From positions 2,790,001 through 2,854,000 of the forward strand of contig JAFFJZ010000012.1 of assembly GCA_018340375.1 (NCBI GenBank): DNA of 64,000 nt. The letters run 5' to 3'. The DNA is from Gonatopus flavifemur. Its lineage: Eukaryota > Arthropoda > Insecta > Hymenoptera > Dryinidae. Positions 1,181 to 63,242 of this stretch are shown in pieces (positions within the stretch are counted from its first letter, which is position 1; every line of letters begins with the position of its first letter). A model generated the notes under the pieces. That model was not told where the DNA came from. It saw only the letters and a program-made list of their open reading frames with translations, and made no database searches. Both the position numbers and the translations under genes were made by a program.

Positions 1181-2735
1181 CACAGAGAAAAAAATTCATT
1201 AACGGGACACTAGCGTCGGTAACGGACCTCTCTTTCTATCATATGATTCTGTCCCTTTCTAACCAATGACCTGAGTTACCGACGCTAGTAGCCCGTTAAA
1301 ACAAAGAATATTTCCTTGATTCTAAGAAATACTTTCATTCAATGGTATCTATAAAATTATTTCATTAAATCATCAAAATAAACAAGCATGTCGTGAAACT
1401 TGGGTCAGAAAAATTGGATTCTTTGTGTTAATGTCATGGGCATTGGTACTGGAATTATATTATTTTGGATTGAAAAAATATTTCATTCACGGAATGAACA
1501 TTTCATGGAAAACAATAAGAGATTACTTTGAGTCAAATGAATATTTTTTCCATTCAAAGAAATGGATTCATTCAACAGTGACAATCAAGTAATGTATTCA
1601 AATCCGCAATTCTTGAGATTTGTTTTATAAAAAAAATTGTATTATTTGTCAATATTTCATAGTCCATTTTAGTGCTTCTGAACTTTTTGATAAACGGAAA
1701 TTCTGCGCACTTTGAATCATCTGAGACTTGATTGAATGGTTGAGGAGTCATGCCATCTTGCCGGTTGAACAATGTTGTCACTTCGGGTAAGGATCTGTAA
1801 TTCACCGTCATAATCTGAAAGAACTATTTATTTGGATCAAGTATTACTTCCTGGGAGGACAGCAACATTAATTCTTTATATACAAACCGTACAATCAGGC
1901 CAGAGCTTGTGAGAAAGTGGCGACACCTTGCGAAAACTAATCACAGTTTGTGAAAGTGAATAAAATTTTGAATGATTCCAAAAATCGATTTCTTCGTTTC
2001 AATGAATTATGCGGTTCAATCAATCCATGGATTGTATTGATTCAGTTCAACGTTTGTTTTTGAAAAGACATTGCGTTGAGAAAATATTCCTTCGATTTGA
2101 TGAAATGAAATTTTCCATTCAACGACGTAATCCATTATTCCTATCAAATGATCATCTTTGAATGAACATTGTATATTCGTTCAATAAAAGTTGAACCCGA
2201 AAAGATTTAGTTCTTTGATGCAATGACTATTATTCTCAGTATATTGATTCCCATATCTTTCTGTGGATGATGAAAACTCTTTGGATACATATATCATTTT
2301 TCTTAATCCAAAGAAATCATTAGTTATCACTGATGAAGAAACATTTGTTTCCTTTCAAGAAGTAAAATATCATATCAAAGATTATATGATACAAAATTTT
2401 TGAATAATCAAGATGATAATCTTATACTTATATCTAAAAAGCTAAGTAATAGAAATAAAAGCATTATTCATAAATCAAGAATTGAAGTTTTAATGAAATT
2501 GGAAATTTCATTCTCAATGAATGGAATGATTGAAACAAGGTCTTAGATATCTCTTCAAAGAAATATTTCTTTGGTTTGAAGAAGAAGACTCTAATGAAAT
2601 CGTTTATTAAATTCTATGATATAACTCATAGAAAAGATGAATTCATCATTGCCATGAATATCAGTTATTCAACTCAAAAAACTCAAAATCCGAAGAAGTG
2701 TATTTCTTTGGGCTAATGAATTTTTCGTCTCAGTG
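1181..2735. mobile_element. TA-flanked element tiled with TTTCATTGAATGAA-like motifs
   Basis: Ends CACAGAGAAAAAAATTCATT and its near complement ending CTCAGTG are each flanked by TA (1179-1180, 2736-2737). The interior repeats short palindromic TTTCATTcaATGAAA-like words many times. A smaller TTAA element sits near the left end (1203-1295). No coding frame with support. Confidence 0.65.
1203..1295. mobile_element. 93-base hairpin MITE with TTAA duplication
   Basis: CGGGACACTAGCGTCGGTAAC is mirrored by GTTACCGACGCTAGTAGCCCG. TTAA occurs on both sides (1199-1202 and 1296-1299). This is a minimal piggyBac-type MITE. Confidence 0.8.
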
Positions 2736-3536: not shown

Positions 3537-4838
3537 TAGGTCCATGAACCTGGACCCGCCACAAACGATTTTGAGGGAGGTGATTATTGGATAATCTAGA
3601 GCCAATTTAGAGCTAATTAAGTGCTGCATTCAAAAATTTAGAGCTCCGCTGGAAATGCTAGAAACTGTGGCGGTTCCAGGTTCATGAGAAGCTGGAACCG
3701 CCACAAAGTAGAATGAGGTGTTTTCGAAAAATTGGACATATGAGAATTTAGAGCTAATTAGGGCTCTAAGAATCCCATATGAGGATTGTTTAAAAACCGC
3801 CCTGGACCATGGGGGGTGGGGGAGCTGGGAAGGAATGAGAGGGGATTGATCGGACAAATGAGAAATGAGAAAAAAAATGGAATTCCAGTCGAAGGATAAT
3901 GAAACTGAACCTAGTGGACCATATCTAGACACATACGAAGAGGGAAACCAATTAGACACACATACGAGGATATGTTGAACTGGAACTGCCACAGGGGAAA
4001 ATCAAAGTTTTTCTGTGAAAATGACATATGAGAATTTAGAGCTATTTTGGAGCTCTTAGAATTCCGAGTGAACATTCCCGATAAATCAGCCCCAATATCA
4101 TAAAATTAGAAAAACGTGGGAAAAATGGGAAATTCGATCGATTGATTCGTGCATTGGGGAGAATTCATAATTCTAGGCAGTGAGCAGTGGAATTCTAACC
4201 CCACAGTCTATATCCAAGCTGCTACAGCCGGTGAAAAAAATTTCATCCTCATGAGATGATATGCTGACCTGGTACCGCCACAAGGAAATATCAAAGTTTT
4301 TCGGGCAAAATGATGTATGGAAATTGAGAGCTATTTTATGGCTCTCAGAATTCCACATGAACATGCTTGATGAATCAGCCCGAGTATGATAAAATTGAAA
4401 ACACGTGGAAAAAATGGGAAATTCGATGGATTGATTTGTGAATTACAGAGAATTCATAATTCTAGGCAGTGAGCAGTGGAATTCGAACTCCACAGTCTAT
4501 ATCCAAGCTGCTACAGCCGGTGAAAAAAATGGATCCTCAAGAGATGATATGCCAACCTGGAACCGTCATAAGGAAGAATCAAAGTTTTTCGGGGGAAATG
4601 ATGTATGGAAATTAAAAGCTATTTTAGAGCTCTTAGAATCCCGAGTGAACATTCCGAATGAATCAGCCCGAATATCATAAAATTGAAAAAACTTGGTAAA
4701 AGTGGGAAATTCGATGGGTTGATTTGTGAATTAGAGAGAATCCATAATCTTAGGCAGTGAGCAGTGGAATTCCACAAATAGCAGAAGTTCCAAAAATCAG
4801 ATCTCATTGAATTCTCTTGGAATTACAAAATGAACTAC
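3537..4838. repeat. GGAACCGCCACAA motif region with 288-base tandem array
   Basis: The motif CTGGAACCGCCACAA and its complement recur near 3550, 3670, 3693, 3981, 4268 and 4557. From about 3985 to 4790 a 288-289-base unit repeats about 2.8 times, with TCAAAGTTTTTC anchors at 4002, 4291 and 4579 and AATCAGCC anchors at 4084, 4373 and 4661. Terminal repeats were not identified. No gene is seen; the frame at 3630-3992 has no support. Confidence 0.75.
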
Positions 4839-4840
4839 TG

Positions 4841-7413
4841 CCCGACTGGAAATTGTCATCAGGTTAACCCAACATATGATGAGGACCTGACAAGGTCATC
4901 CGAAATAAGGAATACCCGTTACGGTCCTGATCGGGATTAGGTGTGGATGACTCACGTATGGATGACCTCATTTGGTCCTAGTCAGGATTTCCTCAAATTA
5001 TCCTGAACAGGTCGAAGTAGGTTTTCCTCGCTGTATCAGGACCTCCGCATCAGGACCTCGTTCGGTCATCCTAAGATCATGGACATAGTTTGATAAACTG
5101 AATACAAGAATGTACAGACTTGATTTCAGATTGTACACTCTTTGATTAAACAAATTTTCCTTCAATAAGAAGAACATGTTTGAACGATTTTCAACTGTGC
5201 CTGTTTTTAAATTCAATCCCTTCATTCCGAACACATTACCTACTTCTGAAAACTGTTGAACAATTTGTTGCATCTATTCTCAATGTGAATTGAAAACTAA
5301 CTATTTGGGTTTTAATTAGGCGGAACTTATGAAAATTTCACAAGATTTTCCACGTTATGTATACAGCGAAAAAAACTTAGCAAACGTTCAACCATCACCA
5401 GCGAAATAAGTATTTCATTTAACTTATCACAATTCTCATAAGGTTGATTTATTGACTATTCAGCATCATTTTTCTTTCCTACACATCGCATCATCTGAGT
5501 ATTATTCAAAGAGTATATATGAACTGAATGAATATGTGTTTCGTCATAATCAAATATAAGTTTGGAACAAGTACTCTTCTTTCGTTATTTCTTGATTAAT
5601 ACGCATAAAAAAATCTGTTATTGAGTGCAAAATGAATTATTGAATCAGTTATCACTGCTGTGATATGTAAAAAATCATAAGTTGCTGATGTGGTGACAAT
5701 TAATTCTATTCAAATATACGATAATATCAACAACGGCAATATCTATATCAATATTAATTTACATCAGTATTTCTCGGAAAAAACTCAGAAATCCCAATCA
5801 TTTTGTAATAATAAAGGTCATGAAGAACTCATTCAATCAAAAATATTTCAAGCGAATGTTCAAAATGAAATGCAAAAAACTTGAATTATTCACTTTCAGC
5901 TCGACGGATGGTTTTACTTTTCAAATTAAAGAGTACTCTTGAATTTGAAATTTGTTAATTTCAGAAAAAAGCCTCATTTTCTGAGTTGAATTTGTTGTTA
6001 GGGTGATGATAAACTTGTAAGAAGAGTGTGAAAGTTGAGTGGAAACTATATTGATCAGGAAAGTCCAAATCGTGTGGCAAAAGTTAGAAAATCTGTCAAC
6101 TCAGCTCACGGCGCATGGGCTTTTCTTCACTAAACCAAATGCTGGCAGGAGAAATTCATCAAAATACAGTGGATTCAAAGTGATGTGAAGTAAGAGAGGA
6201 CCGAAATATTCATTAGATTTTATTCGTTCTTATAAACGTTCTAAAAAATAAGAAAAGACTATAGAAGATCCAAAGTGTCGTCTTCCCATATTTTTGTTCC
6301 AATAATGTTGTGTCATGTTCCTACAAATGAATGTTATTATATTTATGAAACAGGTTCAATACACATGTTTTCTCAACCTAACACTAGTTACTGGTGAAAA
6401 GATACGAAAATGCACACTCAAAAATGCAAATCATTGAAACAAAAATATTGAGAGACGATACATTGAGTCATACATAGCCTTACCATATTTATCAACATTT
6501 TTATAATAACTAATAAAATTCAATGCATGTATCTGTCCTCTCTTACTTCACATCACTTTGAATTCACTATATTTTGATGAATTTCTCCTGCCAGCATTTG
6601 GTTTAGTAAAGAAAAGCTGATAGAATACCCATGCGCTGTCAGCTAAGTTGACAGATTTTCTAACTTTTGCCACACGATTTGGACTTTCCTGATCAATATA
6701 GATTCCACTCAACTTTCAAACTCTTCCTACAAGTTTATTATCACCCTAACAACAAATTCAACCCAGAAGATAAGGCTTTTTTCTCAAATTTGAAAATTTC
6801 AACTCCAAGAGTGCTCTTCAATTTGAAAAATAAAACCATCCGACGAGCTGCAAGTGAATAATTCAAGTTTTTTGTTATTCATTTTGAACATTCTTTTGAC
6901 ATATTTTTGATCAAATGAGTTCTTCATGACTCATATTTCTTACAAAATCAATATGATCTCTGAGTTTTTGCCTAGAAGTGCTGATGTAAGTATTTGAAGA
7001 AAATTCATTTTCACTGCATCAACAAATTACGATTTTTTGACACGTTACAACAGCTATGACTGATTTACTTAATCATTTTGCACTTACTAACAGACTTTTT
7101 GATACACATTATTCAAGAAATAACCACCACACATTTCACAAAAATAATTCATCCATTTGTTGATCACATAAATTTAACCTCACATCTGTCAACCGAACTG
7201 CAATTTTCACACAGGCTCATAGATTAGTTTTGATTTATTTTTGAGGTTTTAGTAAGGAATTCCTCACAAAATCCTAATTAGTCTTTCCTGATGGGGTCCT
7301 TATAATAGTACAGCGTGACATGACTTGTTAGATCCTGATGAGGTTGCCTTATCAGGACCTGATCTGGATCAAGGTTTACCTGATCTGGTCCATGGGGTAA
7401 ATTTCTAGTCGGG
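4841..7413. mobile_element. CCCGACTrGAAATT-ended element
   Basis: CCCGACTGGAAATT at 4841 is mirrored by AATTTCTAGTCGGG ending 7413. TA follows on the right and TG precedes on the left. Subterminal zones (4860-5060, 7270-7400) hold repeated CAGGACCTGATCAGG-like words. The ends match the elements at 15891, 55631 and 59570. The interior is a very long palindrome (about 5290-7255). Confidence 0.6.
5290..7255. repeat. Giant imperfect palindrome, about 2 kb
   Basis: Inverted arms can be followed from about 5290-6245 to 6490-7255, best at 5998-6200 against 6530-6760 (for example CAAATGCTGGCAGGAGAAAT against its complement). The centre lies near 6365. Arm identity is moderate, so it is old or not conserved by conversion. 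No coding frame is supported. Confidence 0.8.
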
Positions 7414-8595: not shown

Positions 8596-8846
8596 CACTG
8601 TAAAACATAATCGGATTTTTTCTACACGCATCTAAGGGAAAATTCCGGTCATGCGATGGGAAATCAATTTCCAATACATGTTTTTGAAATTTCCCATAAA
8701 TTTAACTGAGAATTCTGAACTTCATGGGATTTTTATTATCATTTTGCCGTAAATTTCCGGTAAAATACGGAAAATTCCTAACGCATGTATGTGTTAATTA
8801 CTTCCGAACATTTATGTGAAGTTTCCCATAGAAATTTTTTACAGTG
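8596..8846. mobile_element. CACTGTAAAA MITE tiled with TTCCC/GGGAA motifs
   Basis: CACTGTAAAA at 8596 is mirrored by TTTTTTACAGTG ending 8846; TA on the right, TG on the left. The interior repeats GGGAAATTtCC/TTTCCCAT words. Confidence 0.7.
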
Positions 8847-14150: not shown

Positions 14151-15253
14151 CACTGTAAAAAAAAACTGGAAATTTACTGTGCAACTGGACTGGAAATTTC
14201 CAGTGCTAGTACTGGAATATGGATATTCCAGTACATGTACAGAGATTTTGTTGTTACGTTACTGAAAATTTACCAAGCATAACTGAAAATTCAGTCATTG
14301 TACTGGAATTTTCAAGTTTGAGATGATGTACTGAAATTTTGCCATGATTTCGCGAAAATTTTACCGGCTCGTACTACAATTTTATAGTTCTTGTGCGCCA
14401 AAAAAAAATATTCCCTCAAAAAGGATTTGAGAAAAAATTTGGAATTTAGAAAAAAAAACCTAATCGTTGGTATACTGGAATTATACAGGTTTTTAACTGC
14501 AATTCTCAGGTTTTGTGATGGAATTTTCCAGTTACTATGCAATTGAATTATACAGGTTTTGAACTGCAATTTTCAGGTCGTGTGATGGAATTTTCCAGTT
14601 GCTATGCAACGGAATTTAATCACTGTTGCACTGAAATTTTCCACTTCTATTGGACTTCGTCATTTCTGGCAGGAAAAATTTCAAGTCTTTATATTAAAAA
14701 TTTCCTGATTGAGATTTTGAATAATAATTGTAATTGTAGCCAATGAAATTGATATATGAGGTTTTTCCAAGACTTATCCTCTTGTGTTCTAGATATGAAG
14801 CATATGTAGTAACCCAAGCTGGCCTTCCAACATGTCGCGCTATAGCTCATCGGTTAGGTCTTAGGTTTCAGTTGGTAGGCAGGTAGAAAAGTGTGGGTTC
14901 AAATCCTGTTAGGTAGACATGAGTTTCTGTCCATCCAAATGAACGATCAAAAGTTTCTCAATCATCTTGGAACACAAGGACCCTGCAAAATCACTTTGCG
15001 TGAGCAATTTTTTTTCAATTTTCATGGATATTTTCAGCATTAATTTTCCAGTACATGTCCTGGAAAAGTCCAGCTCGTGTACTGAAAAATTCCAGTACCG
15101 AGGCTCAGAAAATTTCCAGTTTTGATGCGGAAATTCCATAACGTTTGCACTGAATTTTTGCAGTACAAATGTGCTGAAATTTTCCGGTACATGTACAGGT
15201 TAATGACTTCCAGTACATGTACTGGAATTTTCCGGTGAAATTTTTTTACAGTG
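14151..15253. mobile_element. CACTGTAAAAAA element tiled with ACTGGAAATTTCCAGT
   Basis: CACTGTAAAAAAAAACTGG at 14151 is mirrored at 15253 with TA on both sides. The interior carries many copies of the self-complementary ACTGGAAwTTTCCAGT word and halves of it in both orientations. The motif next to each terminal repeat is the same word. A tRNA-like stretch (14830-14925) interrupts the array. Frames at 14312-14746 and 14909-15139 are translations of the repeats. Confidence 0.8.
14830..14925 (+). repeat. tRNA-like A and B boxes, probable SINE fragment
   Basis: TAGCTCATCGGTTAGG at 14843 resembles an A box and GGGTTCAAATCC at 14895 a B box, 52 bases apart. No cloverleaf acceptor stem was found, so it is read as a tRNA-derived repeat fragment and not a tRNA gene. 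Confidence 0.45.
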
Positions 15254-15605: not shown

Positions 15606-15770
15606 GTTAGAGATAAGAACTTCATGCTTGAAGCATAAAAGCATAAATTCAAATAGTGGATTTAAGCTTAATATTGCTATTATCCTGGTCTACGCAATTG
15701 AATTGAGACCAAAATTCGCAAGCATAATGAAGAATAATTTCTCCGACTCGAAGCAGCATAATGTACTTTC
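15606..15770. repeat. Interspersed repeat shared with 54839 and 57964
   Basis: GTTAGAGATAAGAACTT followed by AATTCGCAAGCATAATGAAG matches two pieces at about 54839-54897 and 57964-58065. It is contiguous here and split there by an insertion, so this copy gives the empty-site form. Confidence 0.7.
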
Positions 15771-15890
15771 AATATATATGTTGTATAATCATCTGAAAAG
15801 TGGCAGAAGGGTCGCAAAATTTTGCAATTTTCAGTTAATCCCATAATTTGAAGAATTTTGTCATATTTTCCAGCGATTAGGAATTGTTTA

Positions 15891-17040
15891 CCCATATAGA
15901 AATTCACAATTGGCGCTAGCATGGTGCAACGTAGATAAAGTATGGCCGAGGCTTGACAACCAAGCATGGCGCAAACCTGGAATGATAACATCATTTTATG
16001 ATTTACCTACGTGTTTTTCCAATGAATTCCCACTATCGATGCAACAATGGCAATTAAATATACCATCATTGGTAAACAATTGGAAATTTCGTTTGTCAAT
16101 GCTGCGCCAATGATCAAAGTAAAAAATATTTCACCCAGAAATATATAAAAAGTATGCGCATTTTGCAATTTCTGACATATGTTGTTGGAAGTCTTATTGT
16201 TTTCCCCTCATTTGTTTGTGAACAACTCGGCGTCTTTTGTCGGTAAATTTTGCCATGAGAAGTAGACACAATGTATGTTAGCTCAGCGGTAGGAGTCCTC
16301 TAGTGTTACTCATAGTGAAGAGCGATTTAGTAAGATTTACTTACGCTTTATATATTCTTCGTATACGCGTTTCACCACTCGCGAGAAACACGTACTCTCT
16401 AAATCTGAATCAGTGGAATCTCACTGATTCCGCAGTTATAAGTATACCACTAATTTCAATCAGTTGCATTCCACTGCATAATCAGTGGATAGTCACTGAT
16501 TCCGCAGTTGGATGTTATTTTCACTGATCACAATTAGTCACATTTCACTATGAAAATCAGCGAATATTCACTGATTCGCAGTGTATATGCACTGGTTTGC
16601 AGTGGTATACTTATCACTGTAATCCAGTGGAATTCCACTGATTCAGTTTTAGAGAGTAGCAAAAATATTATATAGGTTGCCAATATTGAGCCATGCTATT
16701 ACCAATGATCGGCGCTACATTGGAAGCTAATTTCTACCGAAACTAGGCCAAAGTTTGGGGCAATATTGAACCACATTCTAAATGATCCTGGCGTTGAATG
16801 GAATCTATAGTTTGGTCAATGTTGGGCCAAGGAGGAGCCAAGCAAGAGCCAAGCTTGGCACAATTGTACCACAATAATACGCTGACAAACGAAACCCGTC
16901 GAACACCGACATCGGTGCAACATTGTATTTATTGTTAATCAACATTGAAGATTTATAGATTGCCAAGCCTTGTCTGTCAACATTGCGCCAAGCTATATTT
17001 CATTGTCAGCATTGGCGGAGCCCAAAAATTTTTGTATGGG
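15891..17040. mobile_element. TA-flanked CCCATAyAGAAATT element tiled with TTGGCGCAATrTTGGGCCAA
   Basis: CCCATATAGAAATT at 15891 and AAATTTTTGTATGGG ending 17040, with TA on both sides (15889-15890, 17041-17042). The interior repeats GGCGC, CAATGTTGGGCC and GAGCCAAGC words in both orientations. A smaller element (16395-16656) is nested in it. Ends resemble those at 4841, 55631 and 59570. Confidence 0.7.
16395..16656. mobile_element. CTCTCTAAA MITE tiled with AATCAGTGGAATTCCACTG
   Basis: CTCTCTAAATCTGAATCAG is mirrored by CTGATTCAGTTTTAGAGAG, with TA on both sides. Its 262 bases are almost wholly copies of a CAGTGGAATtCCACTGATT palindromic word. The ends match the larger element 30323-37163. 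Confidence 0.8.
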
Positions 17041-19444: not shown

Positions 19445-20710
19445 CTTTCTGATCAAAAAGTACCCGGAATTCTCTATTCGAACAAGCCGCGCTTGAGATA
19501 TTGTCGAAATCTTTTGTTTTCCATGTTATTTCATCTGTTATTTAGCGCTCAAATGTCTGTTTGCGCCTCACTCGTCAGAAGTTAGTGCGTGTTGCCTTGT
19601 AAACGAGTCGGGGTTTGTTGTGTTCTGCGAATTTCGCAATGTCGAATTTGGTTGAGCAAAGAGTTTGTCTAAAATTTTGTGTTTTTAACAAAATTTCATG
19701 TGCGGAAGCGTTGAAGATGTTAACAGAAACCTACGGGGACTCGACGATGACGAAAACACAAGCGTACGAGTGGTACAAAGAGTTTAAAGCAGGTCGTATC
19801 GTGGTTGATGATTTGCCTCGTTCCGGTCGTCCATTCACCAGTATCACTGGCGAAAATATTGATAAAATTGAAGAAATCGTCCTCGCAAATCGTCGTGTGA
19901 GCATTAGGGACATAGCATCCTATCTTGATGTCTCGTTCGGATCGGTGCAGAACGTTATGCACAATATTTTGGCCACGAGACGAGTTGAAGCACGGCTTGT
20001 GCCGAGAGTGTTGAATTTGTTGCAGAAACAGCATCGCATTGATGTTGCTAAAGAAATGCTTTCTTTTGGCCAAAATGTTACCGGTGACGAAACATGGGTC
20101 TATGAATATGACATCGAAACTAACCAACGATCATCGGAATGGCGCTTTTCAGACGAGTCAAAACCTCAAAAACCGCGACAGAGTCGATCTAGAATCAAGG
20201 TTTTGTTGACTGTTTTCTTTGATTGCCGTGGTGTGGTCCACTCCGAATTTCTCCCACCAGGTCAGACAGTGAATAAGGAATATTACGTGAGCGTATTGAA
20301 GCGTTTGAGGGAAAACATTCGTCATAAGAGACCAGAATTGTGGAGAGATAACTCGTGGTTTCTTCATCACGATAACGCACCGGCACACACATCTCATCTT
20401 GTACGCGATTATTTGACTAAAAACAATGTTCATACCGTTCCTCAAGCTCCGTATTCACCTGATATGGCTCCTTGTGATTTTTTCCTATTCCCACGACTCA
20501 AGTTACCCCTTCGCGGAAAGCGTTTTGAGACGATTGAAGCAATAAAGTACAATTCGCAGAAGGAACTGAAGGCGATTCCGAAATCGGCCTATGCAAAACG
20601 TTTTGAAGATTGGAAGACGCGTTGGAATATGTGTATTGCTTGCAATGGAGATGAGTACTTGAACCGTTTTCGTTTCATTAAGAAATTCCGGGTACTTTTT
20701 GATCAGAAGG
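19445..20710 (+). mobile_element. mariner-family transposon, near complete
   Basis: Inverted ends CTTTCTGATCAAAAAGTACC at 19445 and its complement ending 20710, flanked by TA at 19443-19444 and 20711-20712. The 1266-base length and TA target are those of mariner elements. The ends differ by few bases. The single gene is described separately. Confidence 0.9.
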
Positions 20711-20742
20711 TAAAGATTCGAAGTGAATTTCCATATGTTTGA
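19639..20742 (+). CDS. mariner transposase, D,D34D, small internal deletion
   Basis: The frame encodes 367 residues from the ATG at 19639 (MSNLVEQRVC). Residues 1-130 form the paired helix-turn-helix DNA-binding half, with YEWYKEFKAG and RSGRPFTS motifs between the two helical units. The catalytic half keeps D150 in VTGDETW, D245 in HHDNAPAH and D280 in PYSPDMAPCDFFLF, with 34 residues between the last two. The WVPHxL-type linker reads RLVPRVL. About 12 residues seem to be missing between RIDVAKEMLS and VTGDETW, where the family normally has a longer stretch, so activity is doubtful. The frame has no stop inside the element: it runs through the right terminal repeat and stops 32 bases into flanking DNA. 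It resembles the GVQW3-like mariner proteins common in arthropods; subfamily not assigned. Confidence 0.9.
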   Translation: MSNLVEQRVCLKFCVFNKISCAEALKMLTETYGDSTMTKTQAYEWYKEFKAGRIVVDDLPRSGRPFTSITGENIDKIEEIVLANRRVSIRDIASYLDVSFGSVQNVMHNILATRRVEARLVPRVLNLLQKQHRIDVAKEMLSFGQNVTGDETWVYEYDIETNQRSSEWRFSDESKPQKPRQSRSRIKVLLTVFFDCRGVVHSEFLPPGQTVNKEYYVSVLKRLRENIRHKRPELWRDNSWFLHHDNAPAHTSHLVRDYLTKNNVHTVPQAPYSPDMAPCDFFLFPRLKLPLRGKRFETIEAIKYNSQKELKAIPKSAYAKRFEDWKTRWNMCIACNGDEYLNRFRFIKKFRVLFDQKVKIRSEFPYV

Positions 20743-30239: not shown

Positions 30240-31199
30240 TTCTTGTTCAAGGTTGGTCCGGAAAAACCCGACCCGGGTTTTATCCACTGGGTTTTTTCAG
30301 ATAAAACCCAATCAAAAACCCACTCTCTAAATTTCTAAGAGTAAAATTCCCACTCCCAATTTGGGGTGGATTTTGCTTTCACTCTTTAAGAGTGATAAAA
30401 TCACTCTAATAGAGTGAATCTCTTCACTTTTTCAACTAGAGTGAAAAGTGTCACTCGTGATTGGAGAGTGATTTGTACTTCCCCCGTTTGAAGATTGAAA
30501 TACCACCTTGTGAAATACTCAGAGTGAAATATCCAAGTTAATTTATATTCAATCGACGCTTCAAAATTATTTGAAAACTCAACGTCTTTTGAGTGACGAC
30601 GTGAGGAATATATAAATCGAATAAAAAAATTTATTCAAGACGTGATTAATAATTGAGTTTACGTTTTTTTATTCTGATGTAGATACGTATATATTGATAA
30701 CATAACCTCAATTTTTATATGGAATTATAATTATAATCTTGAATAACCCTGACAAAAAATGATGGAAAACTATTGAAGTTCAATCGGTTTCTATCGTTTT
30801 GCTTTACCAGGGAAGGCCGTGTTTAGACAAAAAAAATTAGGTACTCGGATCCTATGCACTTAGACACAACAATTTCAAATAATTTATTCAATCATGAAAA
30901 ATTTTAAACTGATAATCATATTCATTTATTAAAGATATAATACTTCATATCTTTCAATATATTTTAATATTCCACATGTATGTATTATTTATTCTGTTGG
31001 TATTCTATAGGAAACACTCACTATAGGAATGACTCAGATGTGTTGATGAAATTTTTCACTCTTCAAGGAATCAATAAAGAAGCTATCAATATTCTCAAAA
31101 GTCAGAAAATGTGTTTTAGTAAAAAATATTCCAATGTTTCATACAATCACAAAGATTTCAATGCTTGGATTTGAATTTTTATCAAGGGCTTTGTTTACT

Positions 31200-31880
31200 T
31201 TTGAGATAGTTATTTCATCTTCTTGAGAATTTATAGAATTTTCATATTAAAAGTGATGGTATAGATCTGAAATACCTTTGGTTCTACGATACCAGTAATG
31301 CTAAGTGTAATTAGTCGATATCTCATATCCGTGTGCGCTAGAACTATTCTCTGATTCCATGTATCGATAAAGAGTACTGGATGTAGTTGATCGATACCAT
31401 GTATCGATGAACAATATTGGAAATAGTTGACTGATGCCATGCATCGATAGACAATATTGGATGACTATGTATTGCTGAACAGTTTTGAGTATAGTTACTC
31501 AGGTAGCACAAGGGTTCTAGGAGAGCTCATAATCAATACAATGTGTTCATGAAGAGCTCTTTCAGAACTCTTGTGCTACCTGGGTAACTATACTCAAAAC
31601 TATTCAGCAATACATGGTCATCCAATATTGTTCATGGATACATGGTATCGATCAACTATATCCAGTATCATTCATCGATGGATGGTATCGATTAACTACA
31701 TCTAGTACTCTCCATCGATACATGGAATCAGATGATAGTTCTAGTGCACACGGATATGTGGTATTGAGTAATTACACTAAGCATTACTGATATCGTAGAA
31801 CCAAAAGTATTCCAGATCTATACCATCACTTTTAATATGAAAATTCTATAAATCCTCAAGAGGACGAAATAATTATTTTA
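31200..31880. repeat. 680-base palindrome with GATACCATGTATCGAT subrepeats
   Basis: Arms 31200-31530 and 31545-31880 are mirror images (AATTTTCATATTAAAAGTGA against its complement). Each arm holds several copies of a GATACCATGTATCGATgaACAAT word. The loop sequence GAGAGCTCATAATCAATAC is repeated at about 31881-31950. Confidence 0.8.
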
Positions 31881-32690
31881 GAAGAGCTCATAAGCAATAC
31901 AATATGTACATAAAGAGCTCTTTCAAAACTCTTGGGCTATCTGGGTAATGGATACTACATATCCTTGTGGAAGACTACATTCAAGTAGTGTTGGACTGCA
32001 TATATACACCTCAATGTTCAATTTAATTACAGAATTGAGTAACTGTAGATCTTTCAATTTCATAAAATTATTTTTAATTCAATCTTTCAAAAAAACCTTT
32101 TTGTAATTTCTCAACATTTGACTTCATTCAAAATTGGACAAGTCCAATGATAATTTTGAATTAATTTCGTAATAAAACGTAATCCAACAGTATTGAGGTT
32201 AGAAAATTACATAGGTTGCAAATTTTTCAAAGTCAAACTTGAATTCTACTCACTGGCATATGATTGATAAAATATTCAATATTTTATTCATTCATTACTG
32301 ATGTTAGATTGATTCAAACATTCATTGGGTCTCATTTGGTCATTATTCTCACATACTGGTCCATAGGAAATCAAACGAGGTAGGGGAGAGTGGGGACACT
32401 TGCACCACTTTTATTTTACATTGTTATAACTTTCGTGGTTAACTTCATTCGATATATTATTTATGGGATTTTGACAGAGCAAACATTTCTTTCTAAGTTG
32501 CAAATGATAGCAAGGTCGAATCTAACATCCGATCAATGATATAAGTGTTCTTCAAAAACATTGCGTTTGGTGCAACTCTCCCCACATGGCGGGAGACTTG
32601 CACCACCCTGTGGGGATATTTGCACCACCCTGCGAATTAGCTCTTTCTCCCTCTCTCTCTCTTTCTCTCTCCCTGAGTAATTGATCCTCT

Positions 32691-33124
32691 CCCTGCTAAA
32701 TTTTCCCAATAAGGACCGATACAAAACGATAAATGTTTTCTATAGTTTTCAATGAGGTTTCTGGATACGGAATTTACGAAGTTATATCGTTATCAAACAA
32801 TAGAACTCTATCGTTCTTTATCGTTTTCTATAAAAATTTAACAGATTGTATAGGGTTTTATCGTGAAATTCGTATAGGAGAAGTATCAGTTATTTGGAAA
32901 AAAATAGTTATGTGTTCTAGAATAAGTAGTACTTTTCCAATACGAATTTCACGATAAAACCCTATACAATCTGTTAAATTTTTATAGAAAACGGTAAGGA
33001 ACGATAGAGTTCTATCGTTTGATAACGATATAACTTCGTAAATTCCGTATTCAGAAACCTCATTGAAAACTATAGAAAAAATTTATCGTTTTGTATCGTT
33101 CTTTATGGGGATAATTTAGCAGGG
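32691..33124. mobile_element. 434-base hairpin MITE, CCCTGCTAAATTTTCC ends
   Basis: Arms of about 185 bases mirror each other closely (AACGATAAATGTTTTCTATAG against its complement; ACAGATTGTATAGGGTTTTA likewise). The loop is near 32890-32930. The chance frame 32733-32957 lies inside. Confidence 0.8.
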
Positions 33125-33329
33125 CTAATTGGAATAATAACCACTATTTTCAAATCTATTTATCAGTATTTATTTGAAATGAATAATCAGATATACAAGT
33201 GAATAGCTGAACTTACGATCAAGATGGACTTTATGCAGTTTAGAGTTTGATACTAGCAACAACCTTTTATTGAAAACTAATTGCACAAGAGTGTTTGCTA
33301 TGAACGGAGGAAACAAGTGAAATTTGTCA

Positions 33330-33602
33330 CTCCTACCAACTCATATCAGGAGGCATAAACTCAATTGAACGTTCTTGAGACTGATTTCAGCGTCGCCAAG
33401 AGGAAGGGTACTTGAACTAATCTCACATGAAGGCACTGATACTGTGTCACAAACTTTTATGATTTGTTGAGCATTTGTGTAAATGTATCCATGTGAGGTT
33501 AGTTCCAGTAGCCTTCCCCTTGGCGGCGCTGAAGTTCATTATGAAAATTCTCTCATTGAGTTTATCCCCCCTGACTTATATGAAGTGAGATCATTCATGG
33601 AA
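33330..33602. repeat. Inverted repeat with GCGCCGCCAAG arms
   Basis: Left arm TTTCAGCGTCGCCAAGAGGA and right arm TCCCCTTGGCGGCGCTGAAG lie in a larger imperfect hairpin centred near 33465. Confidence 0.6.
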
Positions 33603-34214
33603 ATAGCAAAGAGTTTCACAGAGTATTTTATCAAACAAAAGAATCTTTCTCTCTCTCTCTCCTTCCTCTCCTTCTCTCTTCTGTTCTTCGGAAGAACATT
33701 CAGATTCGAACATCCGAGTGTACGGATCATTCTGAATACCTGTTTCTATAAAAAAAATGAAACATCGGAAGTGGTGCAAGTATCCCCGCAATTTGTGGTG
33801 CATTGCACCCCTCACGGCATCAACAGACTACTGATGCTCGCAAAAAAATTCCAGATATTTTCAGTCAAAAAGTGGATCATGAAAATATTCTGCAACGATT
33901 GTACTTTCGATTGAGATTGGTTTCGTGGTGTTTGGGATCACTTACAGATCATGGGAAACTTTTTCTGAAAAACTAAGGAGACACAAATCAAACGATTTTG
34001 AGAGTGCCAAACCTTTTGATATCAATAAAAAAACAGAGATTCATTCCACATTCCTGTGAACTCGTGTGGAGTTAGGTCATCCTTTCAGCAAACGCCACGT
34101 GCAAGAACAGTTCAGAAATTTTGAAAAATTAAGAGATATCTGCTGTGGTGCATATCACCCCATGGTGCAAGTGTCCCCACTCTCCCCTACCCCACATACA
34201 CACTTGTTACAACT

Positions 34215-34300
34215 TTGTCGGTTTAGCTCAGGTCGGTTAGGCATAGGTTATGTAGGTCAGAATTATAGGTAGGTTCTCTAGCGGTTCGATTCCCTCAAAG
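34215..34300 (+). repeat. tRNA-like A and B boxes, probable SINE fragment
   Basis: TTAGCTCAGGTCGGTTAGG at about 34224 and GCGGTTCGATTCCC at about 34279. Spacing is within the range of long-arm tRNAs, but no stem closes, so it is called a tRNA-derived repeat and not a gene. Confidence 0.45.
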
Positions 34301-34413
34301 GTGGTGCATAATTTCTCTCACTGCAATAAGTGATTCAGGAACATGCGAAGTTAAGAATGTAGTCAGATACACACAAATTCTTTTTTTTTTATTCTCTCCA
34401 AAAAAGTAATGAA

Positions 34414-36895: not shown

Positions 36896-37851
36896 AATAA
36901 AAATTCGCAACAGATTTCACCTGAAAAACATTAAAAAATCACTCGCATTGGGAGTGAGACTTTTCACTCTTGAATACGCGGTGAATATTGTCAGTCTAAT
37001 TCAGAGTTGATGAAATCACTCTTTCCAGAGTGAAAAATCACTCCAACATAGAGATATGTAATATCACTCTTCACAAGAGTGAAGTTTCACTCTAATAGAA
37101 CAGGCTCACTTCTGGCTGGCTAATGGAGTGATAGTTCACTCTTAAAGAGTGAAATTTAGAGAGTATAAACTGACGAAATCAGTGAAATTTCACTGATAGA
37201 GTTCTAATGAATCTTTACTGTTCAAAAATTAAGATTCATAGAGTAGAATTGATATTCTCCAATTCTTTCACCGTTTCCTCTATAGTATATTATTTGTATC
37301 TTACGTACTGTATGTATTATTATGTTATAATTTTATGTTTATAAATATACAAATTTCATTAGATTTTATTCTATATGTGTTAATGGAATGTTATCACATA
37401 TTTTGTTTTTCGGAATTCATAAGAAGAGTTCCAACAATCTACGTGAACGAATGTTTGGGAACACACATGTCCTAGTATTTGATGTTGCTGAAATTTGAAT
37501 TGTTCATTGAAACGAATTAATAATCGAATAACGAAATACTCAGATCCAACCTCAGTTCAAGTCTCAAAATCTCGCAGCATATTCTCTCAATAATGTCTTC
37601 ACTTTCAACAAGTCAATAACGATAGTTTATCATATTGAGTTGAAAATAACAATAAAAAATTGAAAAAATCTGAAAAACCCGGAAAAATTAGAAAAAAAAA
37701 CCCACAAAAGAAATTTCGAAAGAATCCAAGTGGGTCGGGTTTTATCCAACTCTGTTCTTGTTGTTTTCAAACAACCAGTCAACCTCTCCTCTTGTTTTAA
37801 AATTGTTCCTTTGAATACGAATTAAAATTTTGTTTCTTTTTTTTGTTCCAG

Positions 37852-39041: not shown

Positions 39042-39387
39042 CAGGGTTCAGACAGAACTGGAATTCCGGGAAATTCGGGAAAACTCAGGGAAATAAAAAT
39101 TGGACTCAAAACACCGGGAATTCTCAGGGAAATTATCAAAAACTTCCAAAAACCTGGAAATCTTAGGGAAATCACTAAAATTTCATCAGCATAAAAATTT
39201 GTTCATCAATTCTATTTTTCATTTTTTACAACATATTTTCTTAATTTTTAATCGTGGAATCTTAGAAATTATACACTGAGGAAAAAATTCCTCTGAAACA
39301 ATCAAATGCTTCTTCTAATGGTATTGAATCAATCATCGGTCATTGATCAAATCTAATTAAATATTGACTTGGTTTAATAGTCGTTCA

Positions 39388-47112: not shown

Positions 47113-47163
47113 GTTCAAGGAGGTAAAAACTTGTTGCTCACAACCCAAACCAAATGTCGCGTA

Positions 47164-47850: not shown

Positions 47851-48408
47851 CACGGAAAAAAATAATTAGCTGTCATTTGAATAGCTAAAAATTAGGTACG
47901 GGAGCTATTTTTTTGACTGTCACAATTACTCACTACCTGAGTCGAAAAATTTGGACGGTTTTTGTCCTCTTATTTCATTTTTAAACTGATTTTGTCCTGA
48001 TGGTTGATTAATGCGGACACAAACAGTACTTTTTCAAGATTTTAGTCTGGATTTCTCTTCAATCACTTTTATTCGCTGGAGGGGTGATTCGGACTAAAAT
48101 TTTGAAAAAGTACTGTTTTTGTCCGCATGAATTAACCATCAGGACAAAATCAATCTGAAAATGAGATGAGAGGACAGAAACCGTCCAAATGTTTCGACTC
48201 GGGTTAGTGATAGCAGCGAGGAATATAGCTAACGCAGCGGAAATTCAACAGCTCATTTATTCAGCTATCTAAATACCGACCACAAAACCCGTGCAGTTAC
48301 AGCTACGATTTTCTACTGCGGCAGCTAAAAATAGTTACAGCTGCAGCGGTGAAACAAGGGTGCTAAAAAAGTGAGTATCTGCTACAGCTATTTCCTTTTT
48401 TTTCCGTG
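47851..48408. mobile_element. CACGGAAAAAAA MITE tiled with TAGCTATTT/CAGCTA
   Basis: CACGGAAAAAAATAATTAGC at 47851 and its complement ending CCGTG at 48408, TA on both sides. Outside the nested hairpin the text repeats AGCTATTT, GCAGCTA and ACAGCTA words. Confidence 0.75.
47936..48203. mobile_element. Nested hairpin MITE, CCTGAGTCGAAAAATTTGG ends
   Basis: Arms of about 120 bases mirror each other (TTTGGACGGTTTTTGTCCTC against GAGGACAGAAACCGTCCAAA; ATGCGGACACAAACAGTACT likewise). It interrupts the AGCTA array of 47851-48408. Confidence 0.8.
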
Positions 48409-52717: not shown

Positions 52718-54362
52718 AATTGCCATATTCATTCATAATTGATGAATATTTTTGAACAGACGCCAAATGAATATATTCATTTAATATAAGTAAACTCTCC
52801 TCTCAGTGTACAGAAAATTTTGAGCAAGCAATGATGTGTATCAACTGAGTCAAATGGTTATATCAATGAATCGTGATGTTAGTTCAACTTCATTATATAT
52901 ATATAATCTTCCTCCAAATCACATTATTCTCCAATTGATTAATTCTTCAATATTGGCCCGAATAATATGAAAATATTCTAAAATTTATATTGTACTCAGA
53001 GAATTTCATAGTAGTTTTGAATTCAATTGTTCAATTTTTCAACCAACTGAAAATCAATTCCATACAAAAATATGATTTGTTAATAGTTAACGAATGTTAA
53101 AGTTATCTAAAGAGCATCGCACAAATATGCGGCTTGGTGATAATAATTTTATATTTATTTCGCCATAAGCAGATATAGGGTTCGTTGACTGTAACTAATC
53201 TTGTCAACTATAAATCAATCTTTTTCTCAGTGTAAGGAATTTTGTAGCTTTCGAAATTATGATTTGACATATTTTTGTATCCCCTATGTTGTTGGTTTCC
53301 ATTTTGAAATCCCAAAAATAATCATCTGTGACAGCAAATTTCGCACAAACCCTTGACATTGTACTCTGCAAAATATATACCATCATATGGAATCAGTAAC
53401 GACCCATTTGCATAAGATTGTCTTGAATTAGACGATTCAAAGCTTGAGATTTGAATTCCTTCAAATTTGCAATGTTTTTCAATTCCTATTCAATGATTGG
53501 GAATGTGAAGAGTGTATCCCTAATAGTAATTGATAACTTTCAATTCCCACAATATAATAGACTCATAAACTAATCTGTAACATATGCAAGCACCTAAATT
53601 ATATCAGTCATATACAAACAACATCGTATCGATTCAAAACTGATTGTGATTGAAATCACCCATTCCATTCAATTGTTTTGAATGAAATGTTTTTTTCAAG
53701 GTATGTTACAAAATTTTGAATATTATTAGAATACAGGAAAAGCTTTTGAAATCAACATCTAAGTAGCAATTAAATATCATATCTTTATCTGAAAATAAAG
53801 GAATGAAATGAATGATCCAGATTCCAACAAGAGTTGGAATAATTTTAGGAATCACAACGATTCTAATAATTTTCACACCTTTGTAGAGCGTGTTTAGAAC
53901 TTATATAACAATTGATAAGAACAGAAAAATGCACATTTTCTCTTATTTTCTAATCATCAGGGAAAAGTGTGAATTCCATCAGGGAAAAATCAGGGAATTT
54001 TGAAAAGGCATTCCAGCGGGAACCCTGTTTAGGAACAATATGTGTTTTTCTTAGTCGTACTCAGAAAATACATACTATAGAAAATAATTGTGCGATTTCC
54101 CTCCAAAGGATGGTGACAGCGAAATTCCTAGATTTTTCCTCATTCGTAGAAGATTCAACGCCTAAAACTCCAAATAGTTCCTCGAATTGTAGCTGGAAAA
54201 TCCCTTATTTTTTTTAATGAGAAAAAACAATTTCCCCGCGATAGTAGAAAAACTCTCCATAGTTTATACAGTGCGATGTAAACGTGCTTCATGCTTCGAT
54301 GAAAAAGGATTAATTGAAAATGTGGATAGTAGAATTGATAATTTTTCACATGAACGAAAATA

Positions 54363-54945: not shown

Positions 54946-55197
54946 CACTGAAAAAAAAATTTATTCCAGTCAAATAAATATTTATTTGTCCTGTACCAAA
55001 GAAATATTTATTAGAATTAACAAAGTATTCTTTGGAACCAAAATAATTTATTGGAATCAAATAGATGGTTTTAATCGTTTATTTGATTCCAATAAATTAT
55101 TTTGGTTCCAAAGAATACTTTGTTAATTCTAATAAATATTTCTTTGGTACAGGACAAATAAATATTTATTTGACTGGAATAAATTTTTTTTTCAGTG
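54946..55197. mobile_element. Perfect hairpin MITE, 118-base arms, 16-base loop
   Basis: Left arm 54946-55063 and right arm 55080-55197 are exact reverse complements over all 118 bases by my reading, around a 16-base loop. Ends are CACTGAAAAAAAAATTTATT. TG lies outside on both sides. The two strands carry the same chance peptide (EKKIYSSQINIYLSCTKEIF). Confidence 0.9.
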
Positions 55198-55630: not shown

Positions 55631-57810
55631 TCCCTAGTAGAAATTTGACAGGGAATTCGCTATCAGAAGCATGGCCCTCGTAAGGCTGCAATAGGGAACT
55701 CCTAATTAACGAAAACTTTTAATTACCTTATCAGGTCCTGACATGGCATCCTGTTTAGGACTTCAGAACATCGTAACGCAAGGTTGTTGACAGGTCCCAG
55801 TCAGATTTTCCCTTTCAGTAACTCAGACATGGTATTCCCTAGTGAAAATCGAGAATAGAAATAGATAGAAAAATTCTTATTCGCTTCTATCCACTTTCAA
55901 CGTCATTTTCTGCACCACTTTTGGACATTGTGTTCGTATGATTGCCATACCGTGATCCATTGGTTGGATATATAATGAAAAGAACACGTATATATATATT
56001 ATATATGACAAAAAAATATTTTATTTATTTTTACGGTCGCACAACTGTTCGGCTCGGAAGACGAGAAAGTTTAATACACAATGTCGCGATGCGACTTGAC
56101 TAAATCCGATGAATACCGACGGTATCCGAAGGAACACGAACTCATCCCAAATTGAAAAGAAAATCGTACACATTGACCTGGATAGAAATTTGGTTTATCC
56201 ATTTCAATCCATAAAAATGGATTAAGAAAAGTGAGGATCGAGAATAGAAATGGATAGGGAAATTTGTATTCATTCCTACCCACTTTCAATGTCATTTTCT
56301 GCACCGCTTTTTAACATCGGGCCTGAATAGGGATTTGTTATATCCGCTTTAATGCATGAAAATGAACTATAGTTTATATTTCACTTTATATTCCAATTGT
56401 AATGAGATTCCTTTATCTTTTTCAATCCCAAAAAATGGATTCAAGTGTACATCTGTTGATTTACTCTGATCTCCAATAAAATATGAATCCGCTCAATCCA
56501 TTTCAATACATGAAAATGAATTGGAGGGAATTATAATTTTCAATGAGGATTAAATACCATTCTGAATGTCACTTAATCTTTCGATTGTAATAAGATGCCT
56601 TTACCTTATTCAATCCCAAAAAATGTATTTCAGTGTACATCTGTTGATTTATTCTGATCTCAAATAAAATATGAATCCGCTCAATCCATTTCAATACATG
56701 AAAATGAATTGGAGTCAATTATAATTTTCAATGAGGATTAAATACCATTCTGAATGTCACTTAATCTTGGGATTGTAATGGAATATTTTTATTCTGTCCA
56801 ATCCCAGAAGATGAATTCAACAAAATATATGTGGATTCATTCTGATTATCAATTTAGAGATTGGAATGGATAGGGGATGGGAAACGATTGAAATTCGGAT
56901 TCAATGTCTATACTTTGATCATTATAAAAATGGATTGAATTATCGCAACTTGAAAATTCATTACATGCAATAGAAATTATATCCCAAATTTAGCATTGAA
57001 AAGGATTAAAAATTCAAAATTAGATTAGAAATTCAAAAATTAAATGTTTTTACACTTTCATGAATACAATTATATTGGAATTGAATTCGGAATGCATTGG
57101 ATAAACTTCCTGCTTGCACTTCTCTTGGAATAGACGTCATAGAAATAGATTCGAATGGATTCAGATGCATAGAATCCCAATCCATTCCAATCCATTCCTA
57201 TTCTCCATTTTCACTAGGGTCCCTATCAGAACCTGATCAGGATTGCCTTGACTCATCCGTATTTGAATTGTGAGGTAACTGTCAAGATATCTTGATCAGG
57301 ACCTGATCAGGATTGCCTTGGCTCATCCGTATTTCAATCATGTGATAACCGACAAGACAGCCGAATCAGGACCTGATCAATTCAGAACGATGAATGTATC
57401 AAATTTTTCAGAATTTCCACAGGACTCACTAGAAATTTACCTGTCTTTTTTGAATGTTCAACTGAGGTCTATTTGGATCATCAGTAAAATTTCTTCTGTT
57501 AGGGGAGTTTCAAAAAATTTTATGAAAAGTGAATTCCATGAAAATCAAATTGAATGTTGGTATAAGGCTTAGATGAGGTCGTGATTGGGAATTCCGCTAC
57601 CACCCGGATCAGGTCTTGATTGGGAACTCAATTACTACCCCAATCAGATCCTGATTGGGAAACGTTTGGTTTTCCTGACCAGTACCTTGTCTTTTCCCTG
57701 CGTTACATTTTTGTCAAGACCTCATCAGATACTCAAGTCAGGCCCTGAACAGAAAGCAGGGATGCCTGATCTGGACCTGATGTTTTCCATATCAAAATTT
57801 CTACTAGGGG
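55631..57810. mobile_element. CCCTAGTAGAAATTT-ended element with CAGGACCTGATCAGGA words
   Basis: CCCTAGTAGAAATTTGA at the left (55632) and TCAAAATTTCTACTAGGG at the right, TA after the right end and TG before the left. Subterminal zones (55670-55830, 57220-57790) repeat CAGGACCTGATCAGGA. Ends and words match the element at 4841-7413. Chance frames at 57318-57956 lie in it. Confidence 0.7.
55837..57219. mobile_element. CCCTAGTGAAAATsGAGAATAG element tiled with AATCCATTTCAATCCAT
   Basis: CCCTAGTGAAAATCGAGAAT at 55837 and ATTCTCCATTTTCACTAGGG ending 57219. The interior is made of AATCCATTTCAATcCATgAAAATGgATTG words. From about 56400 to 56830 a 188-base unit is repeated (ATCTGTTGATTTA at 56451 and 56639). 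Confidence 0.75.
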
Positions 57811-61816: not shown

Positions 61817-62052
61817 CACGCAGAAAACAGATGTGTTGAAAAGTCCCATAATTTATTGAGGATTAGCGCCAGTCTGTGATGAATGAAATTATTTACCTGA
61901 ATATAGCTTCAAAAGTACCATAATTTCTTGTAAAAATACATCTAATTATGGGAGTTTTCGAAAGTAAATTCAAGTCAAAACTCTATCTGTCACAGACTGG
62001 CGCTGATCCTCAATAAATTATGGGACTTTTCAACACATTTGTTTTCTGCGTG
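61817..62052. mobile_element. 236-base MITE, CACGCAGAAAACAgATGTG ends
   Basis: TIRs of about 60 bases (AAAAGTCCCATAATTTATTG and GCGCCAGTCTGTGA against complements), with TA at 61815-61816 and 62053-62054. Confidence 0.9.
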
Positions 62053-62995: not shown

Positions 62996-63242
62996 CACTG
63001 TAAAAAATTTCTTTGTAAAATTCCAAATAAAGTTTGGCAGTTTTTTACACAAACTTTTTTTGTAAATTACCGAACAAAATTTTGTAAATATTCAAAAAAA
63101 ATTGTGATTTTACGAAGATTTTCGAAAATTTACCAACTTTTGTTTGTAAATTTACACAAAAGTTCGAAAATCATTTTTCCAAAACTAATTTGTAAATTTT
63201 CGAACATTTTTGTTTGGAATTCAACAAATTTTTCTTACAGTG
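62996..63242. mobile_element. CACTGTAAAAAATTT MITE tiled with TTTGTAAATTTTCGAAC
   Basis: CACTGTAAAAAATTTCTTTG at 62996 and CAAATTTTTCTTACAGTG ending 63242, TA on both sides. The interior repeats TTTGTAAATTtnCGAAnA words in both orientations. Confidence 0.85.

What the first reader, a model, noticed from the sequence alone, without database searches (positions are those of the whole stretch)
14151..15253. Elements tiled with private self-complementary words (motif-tiling MITEs)
At least a dozen elements have simple ends but are filled with many copies of one short palindromic word, different in each. Examples: ACTGGAAATTTCCAGT (14151-15253), CAGTGGAATTCCACTG (16395-16656), TTCACTCTTTAAGAGTG (30323/37163), TTGTTAATAGTTAACAA (49809/53236), TTTGTAAATTTnCGAA (62996-63242), AATCCATTTCAATCCAT (55837-57219), CAGGACCTGATCAGG (4841-7413, 55631-57810), TTGGCGCAATnTTGGGCC (15891-17040), TAGCTATTT (47851-48408), TTTCATTGAATGAA (1181-2735). 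The word beside the terminal repeat is usually the same one. The arrays may be multiplied transposase or host-protein binding sites, or products of hairpin-template slippage during transposition. I know of no standard name for this class.
Basis: partly seen in the sequence, partly recalled or inferred. Interest (0 to 1): 0.75.

Follow-up and report, generated by a model that had tools for sequence, protein, structure and literature searches.

The report
Transposon remnants carrying private binding-site arrays
Many small non-coding transposons in this insect-like DNA are filled with copies of their own short palindromic word, most likely docking sites for a mobility protein like those known from plant CACTA transposons.

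Summary
Each of the 10 listed words exceeds shuffled controls. A best-word search run equally on shuffles confirms arrays in most regions tested, and control windows are mostly null. In 8 of 11 elements the word is commonest in its own element. Word centres prefer 20-26 bp spacing (32 of 91; random mean 12.1), spacers are near noise in several elements, and arm changes are not mirrored. This fits arrays of dimeric protein sites better than satellite growth or hairpin slippage. Of 12 elements with two ends, 9 have identical 2-bp flanks. One (55632-57809) ends in CCCTAGTAGAAA, 11 of 12 with published plant CACTA ends, with GT/GT flanks. CACTA elements are known for family-specific direct and inverted subterminal repeats, so 'no standard name' is only partly right. 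The mostly TA-flanked groups stay unassigned: no transposase or genome copy was seen (genome search did not complete). Some listed words (AATCCATTTCAATCCAT, TAGCTATTT, the 15891-17040 word) are not clear palindromic arrays. Verdict: new variant of a known kind, moderate interest.

The parts
14151..15253 (.). A1: CACTGTAAAAAA ends, TA/TA flanks, word (G)TACTGGAAATTTCCAGTA(C) mostly in two blocks, about 14163-14705 and 15021-15240; word-poor middle
8596..8846 (.). A8 (not in the finding): CACTGTAAAA ends, flanks TG/TA, word CATGGGAAATTTCCCATG
   Evidence: (6 words, shuffles mean 0.4, max 1)
62996..63242 (.). A2: CACTGTAA(A/G)AAA ends, TA/TA, word TTTTGTAAATTTACAAAA
49809..49976 (.). A3: CACTGAGAAAA left end after TA, right end unclear; word GATTTGTTAAnnnTTAACAAATC
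53065..53232 (.). A3b: inverted second copy of A3 (76% identical); its own best-word score does not exceed shuffles
47851..48408 (.). A4: CACGGAAAAAAA ends, TA/TA, few AAATAGCTG words at both ends around an inserted hairpin
54946..55197 (.). A5: CACTGAAAAAAA ends, TG/TG flanks, near-perfect fold-back of TTCAAATAAATATTTATTTGAA-like words
1181..2735 (.). A6: CACAGAGAAAAA and CACTGAGACGAA ends, TA/TA, loose array of ATTTCATTnAATGAAAT
61817..62052 (.). A7: CACGCAGAAAAC ends, TA/TA, long fold-back
16395..16656 (.). B1: CTCTCTAAA ends, TA/TA, word AATCAGTGGAATTCCACTGATT
30323..30480 (.). B2b: CTCTCTAAATTTC left end, word TTTCACTCTTnAAGAGTGAAA, right end not found
36930..37163 (-). B2: same end (at 37163) and word as B2b, different number and arrangement of words; other end not found
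55632..57809 (.). C1: CCCTAGTAGAAATTT ends, GT/GT flanks, word TGATCAGGACCTGATCA near the ends, best at the right; CACTA/TRC-like
55837..57219 (.). C2: CCCTAGTGAAAAT ends, flanks TT/TC, nested in C1; repeated but not self-complementary word AATCCATTTCAATCCA
4841..7413 (.). C3: CCCGACTGGAAATT and CCCGACTAGAAATT ends, flanks TG/TA, same word as C1
32691..33124 (.). D1: CCCTGCTAAATT ends, CT/CT flanks, fold-back with AACGATAGAnnTCTATCGTT words
31250..31830 (.). E1: fold-back with ATCGATACCATGTATCGAT words in a unit of about 40 bp, another hairpin nested at its centre; ends not delimited

Best explanation
These are non-autonomous cut-and-paste DNA transposons (many MITE-sized) whose bodies carry subterminal arrays of a family-specific, dyad-symmetric DNA word. 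The word is most likely the site for a dimeric DNA-binding protein made by the autonomous partner (the transposase, or an accessory protein like TnpA of maize Spm), repeated about every two helical turns so that many dimers coat the ends and help to pair them. Ends are shared by several families because the catalytic protein reads them; words differ because the binding protein and its sites change together. Shown here: ends, 2-bp flanks, word arrays, preferred spacing, partial privacy, weak spacers, no mirrored changes. Inferred: the protein, its dimeric binding and its role in transposition. The CCCTAGT family is best placed in the CACTA superfamily (animal TRC branch); the CACNG and CTCTCTAAA groups look alike in layout but are unassigned.
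For: Arrays beyond chance. Word centres 20-26 bp apart: 32 of 91 spacings in 11 word lists, 5000 random placements mean 12.1, max 24; without the loose A6, 25 of 64 vs 8.8, max 19 (A3b and C1 were left out of these lists, and the range was chosen, where 32 of 83 spacings below 60 bp from all 13 elements fell in it, against 13.8% in shuffles). In A1 the arms carry up to 1.44 bits, positions 11-15 from the centre 0.11-0.18 against a noise level of 0.13, and signal returns at 16-18. Right arms reshuffled among words of one set give the same number of complementary pairs (939 of 1955 observed, 938.2 expected). Identical 2-bp flanks in 9 of 12 elements with two ends: six TA, and TG (A5), GT (C1), CT (D1). 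C1 ends CCCTAGTAGAAA: 11 of 12 with a Jozin CACTA end; of 127,978 window 12-mers only 3 do as well, two of them C1's own ends. The Tribolium TRC end begins CCCTAGTAG, and the animal TRC elements with known ends start with CCC and have 2-bp flanking repeats (passages). CACTA subterminal repeats: 10-20 bp, direct and inverted, bound by TnpA-like proteins, divergent between families of one species; in soybean Tgmt 24 right-border repeats can form 12 palindromes (passages).
Against: No transposase, no genome copies and no binding data. TA in 6 of the 7 type A and B elements with matching flanks is more like Tc1/mariner than CACTA. C2 (TT/TC), C3 (TG/TA) and A8 (TG/TA) lack an exact 2-bp repeat. 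A resultant-length test over periods 15-40 bp was not significant (158 of 2000 random sets as good). Some spacer positions are above noise in A2 (A-rich), A8 and B1. A3, A5 and A8 words are no commoner at home than in another element. Fold-backs (A5, A7, D1, E1) may owe much of their repetition to one long inverted repeat. Tgmt palindromes are sparser (12 in 732 bp).
Confidence: 0.55

Rival explanations
1. Hairpin-template slippage or gap-repair copying during transposition builds and renews the words; they have no binding function.
For: Fold-backs exist beside them (A5, A7, D1, E1); 4 of 7 folded 145-150-base pieces are more stable than shuffles (z -4.8 to -5.6; the other three -0.5, -1.1, -2.6); A5 (z 2.3, 5 words; 4 of 4 double changes complementary) and weakly B1 (7 of 11) show some mirrored change.
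Against: Pooled arm-shuffle z 0.05 over 13 word sets and 195 words; of 262 positions changed in both arms 94 are complementary, with no excess over shuffles in most sets. The test is weakened by lax word thresholds, by choosing words on total mismatches, and by old neutral decay, which would also hide mirrored change.
Confidence: 0.15
2. Old satellite-like tandem arrays: a palindromic unit multiplied by unequal exchange inside the element and then decayed neutrally.
For: Some true tandem units exist: 67 bp in A1 (14477-14641), 188 bp in C2, 35 and 70 bp in C1; preferred spacing of 20-26 bp.
Against: Spacing is uneven and spacers in A1, A6 and B2 are near noise while words are not, which a duplicated unit would give only if very old; but words were chosen by match, so this contrast is partly built in.
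Confidence: 0.15
3. The TA-flanked groups (A, B) are Tc1/mariner-superfamily MITEs whose words are extra transposase or host-factor sites, unrelated to CACTA. (This concerns class, and can hold together with the binding-site reading.)
For: TA/TA in A1, A2, A4, A6, A7 and B1; mariner genes are present in the window.
Against: A5 has TG/TG and A8 TG on one side; ends of A1, A2, A4, A5, A8 match a recalled En/Spm end in 8-10 of 12 positions, but A6 in 7, A7 in 6 and B1 in 5-6, which is weak in A/T-rich DNA.
Confidence: 0.3
4. Host-protein arrays or chance assemblies in A/T-rich DNA.
For: Two of 24 control windows also score z>4, and A/T-rich words match loosely 79-119 times in the window (A2 105, A5 119, A6 79).
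Against: Shuffled controls, shared ends and spacing.
Confidence: 0.05

Closest known systems
CACTA (En/Spm) subterminal repeats, e.g. Tgmt of soybean and Jozin of Chenopodium (PMC2613891, PMC8978399; passages seen)
   Same: Conserved short ends; many direct and inverted copies of a 10-20-bp motif beside them; motif differs between families of one species; motif pairs can form palindromes
   Different: Here many are MITE-sized, with mostly TA 2-bp flanks (those papers give 3-bp TSDs), and words about 20-26 bp apart, often through the whole body
Animal CACTA-related TRC elements: SmTRC1, Tribolium and Aedes TRC, Spongebob (PMC1636069, PMC4298943; passages seen)
   Same: CCC start, 2-bp flanking repeat, Tribolium end CCCTAGTAG as in C1
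   Different: Passages seen report no palindromic arrays ('subterminal' occurs 0 times in PMC1636069, though its TIR has an internal repeat); no transposase seen here
ATon MITEs of Aedes aegypti (PMC3422177; passages seen)
   Same: Many insect families with similar extreme ends, unique interiors and an A/T dinucleotide target; ATon-I has subterminal stem-loops; partner not identified
   Different: Ends ATAGGCC in ATon-I and II; no word arrays in the passages seen
hAT subterminal repeats, e.g. Buster1 (PMC4298943; passage seen)
   Same: Repeated short motif (TGGGTCGCG) near the ends
   Different: hAT elements have 8-bp TSDs (recalled); here 2-bp

Membership tests
CACTA superfamily (TRC branch), for C1 | End begins like known CACTA/TRC ends | tested here: met
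   11 of 12 with Jozin, first 9 bases with Tribolium TRC
CACTA superfamily (TRC branch), for C1 | 2-bp TSD (TRC) | tested here: met
   GT/GT. No empty site seen
CACTA superfamily (TRC branch), for C2 and C3 | 2-bp TSD (TRC) | tested here: inconclusive
   TT/TC and TG/TA, one mismatch each
CACTA superfamily (TRC branch), for C1 | Subterminal direct and inverted 10-20-bp repeats | tested here: met
CACTA superfamily | Transposase_21/tnp2 transposase in the element or its partner | not testable with these tools
   no such frame sought beyond 8 ORFs; genome search unanswered in 15 tries
CACTA superfamily, for type A | CACTA-like start | tested here: inconclusive
   CACTG in A1, A2, A3, A5, A8 and one end of A6; CACGG, CACAG, CACGC otherwise
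Tc1/mariner MITE, for types A and B | TA target duplication | tested here: inconclusive
   TA/TA in six; TG/TG in A5, TG/TA in A8
Tc1/mariner MITE, for types A and B | Ends match a Tc1/mariner transposon | not tested
   no autonomous copy with these ends examined
MITE | Short, inverted ends, small TSD, no coding capacity | tested here: met
   A2, A4, A5, A7, A8, B1, D1 are 236-558 bp with inverted ends (A8 without an exact TSD); no ORF of 120 aa or more in them
MITE | High copy number of similar copies | not testable with these tools
   genome search unanswered; only pairs A3/A3b and B2/B2b seen

The most novel reading that the evidence does not exclude
Types A and B are an undescribed insect transposon group in which the same ends are combined with rapidly changing private palindromic words packed about every two helical turns through the whole element, so that the DNA-binding partner and its lattice of sites co-evolve and split one lineage into many non-cross-reacting families.
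Probability: 0.2. Interest if true: 0.65.

Novelty: new variant of a known kind. Interest (0 to 1): 0.42.

Why it matters
If the words are partner-protein sites, each family carries a readable record of its protein's DNA specificity many times over, and side-by-side families with equal ends and different words would show how transposon recognition codes change. It would also extend the CACTA-type subterminal array, described in the plant papers seen here, to insect MITEs and give a simple signature for finding them.

Tried and rejected
Tried without result: genome copies of A1 (genome search 'own', 15 unanswered calls); end-plus-word pattern in IMG/VR (0 hits); mariner relatives in IMG/VR (3 stretches matched a pattern, none confirmed); end pattern in IMG/VR (70 stretches; none with a partner end within 2 kb and either equal 2-bp flanks or 15 of 20 inverted matches); phage records with the mariner gene (no match); Rfam (0 at gathering score); ARAGORN (0). 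Papers holding CACTGTAAAAA: 8, none on transposons by title, none opened; papers holding two of five end words or 'transposon' plus one: 4, not opened. Resultant-length periodicity test not significant. Rejected: one element for 30323-37163; palindromy of AATCCATTTCAATCCAT; hairpin copying as the main process; simple chance.

Limits: words were defined from the same DNA they are counted in (only correct for this, the control z values with 8 shuffles each); the 20-26-bp range was chosen after looking; A3b and C1 were left out of the spacing lists; word thresholds are lax (up to 10 mismatches of 20), and A5, D1 and E1 entered it with their left halves only. Ends of A3, A3b, B2, B2b, E1 and the 15891-17040 region are incomplete or uncertain, and these are left out of the flank count. 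One search shifted some ends because TA is self-complementary; flanks are given as, with elements starting at CAC, CTC or CCC. In one search the left end of A7 was taken one base off; one search gives it right.

Full report
What the window is. A 64-kb A/T-rich (36% GC) eukaryotic stretch with mariner transposase frames (50168-51235, 19615-20742, 46540-47166; Pfam Transposase_1 and HTH_48). Named relatives of the first among the 120 listed hits include ant, bee, fly and cricket proteins, so an insect host is likely; the species is unknown to me.

Check of the words. Each of 12 word/interval rows exceeds the maximum of 200 dinucleotide shuffles at one mismatch level or more. Scores against null maximum: A1 208.7 vs 52.8 (25 sites), B1 74.1 vs 34.2 (7), B2 80.4 vs 36.1 (7), A2 71.2 vs 39.1 (8), A6 90.2 vs 57.2 (21), C1 right part 136.8 vs 44.7 (10). 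The six that failed: 53060-53240 (A3b), 15650-15900, 39380-39920 and three controls. In one search, 10 of 10 element windows had z 5.4-13.9; 24 control windows had a median of 0.58, with 2 above 4. The cross table of the same call (words with at most 6 mismatches of 20, 11 elements) shows the word commonest at home in 8 of 11: A1 14 at home, 2 in A8, 0 in the other nine; B1 6 at home, 2 elsewhere; B2 3 and 2; C1 3 and 0; E1 6 and 0; D1 4 and 5 spread over four elements; A2 8 and A6 15 with more leakage. A8's word is as common in A1 (3 and 3; both share the core GGAAATTTCC), A3's in A5 and A6 (2 each), A5's in A6 (8 and 8). Loose matches elsewhere in the window exist too (A1 23 in all, B1 18, B2 29, E1 15, A5 119). 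So 'private' holds for the G/C-bearing words better than for the A/T-rich ones.

Layout. With a threshold of 7 mismatches of 20, word centres of 13 elements were listed. In the 11 lists used for (A3b and C1 left out), 32 of 91 neighbour distances are 20-26 bp (random placement with the same minimum distance: mean 12.1, largest of 5000 is 24); with 40-51 bp added, 49 of 91 (22.0, largest 37). Without A6: 25 of 64 (8.8, 19). A6 alone: 7 of 27 (p 0.035). A resultant-length test over periods 15-40 was not significant (158 of 2000 random sets as good), so this is a preferred distance with jitter, not a strict period. Half-words often alternate in direction: convergent starts mostly 7-11 bp apart and divergent ones mostly 12-17, with longer ones too. 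In A1, information is confined to about 10 bases on each side of the centre, falls to 0.11-0.18 bits (noise 0.13) at positions 11-15 and returns at 16-18; A6 and B2 look similar, B1, A8 and above all A2 have some spacer positions above noise. Words were chosen by match, so conservation inside them is expected; the informative part is the weak spacer. In A1 the words form two blocks next to the ends with a word-poor middle; in elements of about 250 bp there is no room for a middle, which may be why the small ones look wholly tiled (inference).

Mirrored changes. If hairpin copying kept the arms alike, a change in one arm should appear in the other. I reshuffled right arms among the words of each set: 939 of 1955 position pairs complementary, 938.2 expected, pooled z 0.05 over 13 sets and 195 words; single sets range from -1.94 (C1 right) to 2.32 (A5, five words). 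This argues against ongoing hairpin copying, with limited power because weak words were included and because old neutral decay would look the same.

Ends and targets. Three kinds of ends recur: CAC[T/G/A].. followed by A-rich DNA (A1-A8), CTCTCTAAA (B1, B2, B2b) and CCC.. (C1-C3, D1). Of 12 elements with both ends, 9 have identical 2-bp flanks: TA in A1, A2, A4, A6, A7, B1; TG in A5; GT in C1; CT in D1. A8 and C3 have TG/TA, C2 TT/TC. As TA is self-complementary it could be part of the ends in types A and B. Same ends go with different words (A1 versus A2; B1 versus B2), and the same word goes with different ends (C1 and C3). The pair B2/B2b shares a 14-base end and the word, but B2 has about 78 bp more, with further words, directly inside the end; beyond it the alignment is poor. 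A3/A3b are 76% identical over 173 aligned positions.

What it is. C1's end CCCTAGTAGAAA matches published Jozin CACTA ends in 11 of 12 positions; of 127,978 window 12-mers only 3 do so well, C1's two ends and one unrelated at 26181. The Tribolium CACTA-related element begins CCCTAGTAG, and the animal TRC elements with known ends start with CCC and have 2-bp flanking repeats (passages of PMC1636069 and PMC4298943). CACTA elements carry 10-20-bp subterminal motifs in direct and inverted orientation (PMC8978399, passages), bound by TnpA-like proteins, variable between families even within one species, and able to form palindromes (12 in the right border of Tgmt; PMC2613891, passages; similar for TgmR, PMC4219821, passages). 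D1 shares only the CCC start and a 2-bp repeat. Types A and B show a similar anatomy, but their target is mostly TA and their ends are only weakly like a recalled En/Spm end (9-10 of 12 for A1, A2, A5 and one end of A8; 8 or less for the rest); they are not assigned.

How it most likely works. Shown: arrays, preferred spacing, partial privacy, ends, flanks. Inferred: each word is a two-fold symmetric site for a protein dimer; many dimers gather at both ends, help bring the ends together and mark them for the catalytic protein, which reads the shared end. Change of the binding protein selects for change of all words, giving different vocabularies on shared ends. The soybean authors suggested such co-divergence of subterminal repeats and their binding proteins. 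Rivals are listed with their tests.

Novelty. Ten text searches of an open-licence library that lacks most subscription journals listed no paper whose title or abstract start describes palindrome-tiled insect MITEs; one search listed 15 of 27, and most listed papers were not opened. Of ten papers fetched I saw passages of nine and the abstract and outline of one (PMC2872659). This is weak evidence of novelty. Dense packing through MITE-sized bodies with mostly TA flanks appears to be a variant of the known subterminal array, not a new kind.

Noticed in passing
14880-14990: tRNA-like (SINE-like) piece with A-box-like and B-box-like (GGGTTCAAATCC) stretches in the middle of A1; a similar A-box-like stretch near 16280. 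Seen by eye; ARAGORN found no tRNA.
   Followed up: no
50168-51235: Open mariner transposase frame of 355 aa next to A3; its best full-length relatives are 77-81% identical unnamed proteins, one partial one 93% over 66% of it
   Followed up: partly
59780-60138: 69-bp tandem array, 5.2 copies, 93% matches; also a 289-bp array at 3969-4772 and a 188-bp array at 56381-56846 inside C2
   Followed up: no
31485-31590: Separate hairpin with GAGCTC and CCAGGTAGCACAAG-like ends nested at the centre of E1; a related piece lies at 31876-31948
   Followed up: no
42205-42594: Possible RhoGEF exon (Pfam RhoGEF E 0.00095, 19.8 bits, below the curated cut-off of 27.6)
   Followed up: no
39274-39960: TA-CACTGAGGAAAAAA end followed by A5-like TTCAAATAAA words and a 79% inverted repeat; right end not found; best-word score not above shuffles
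   Followed up: partly
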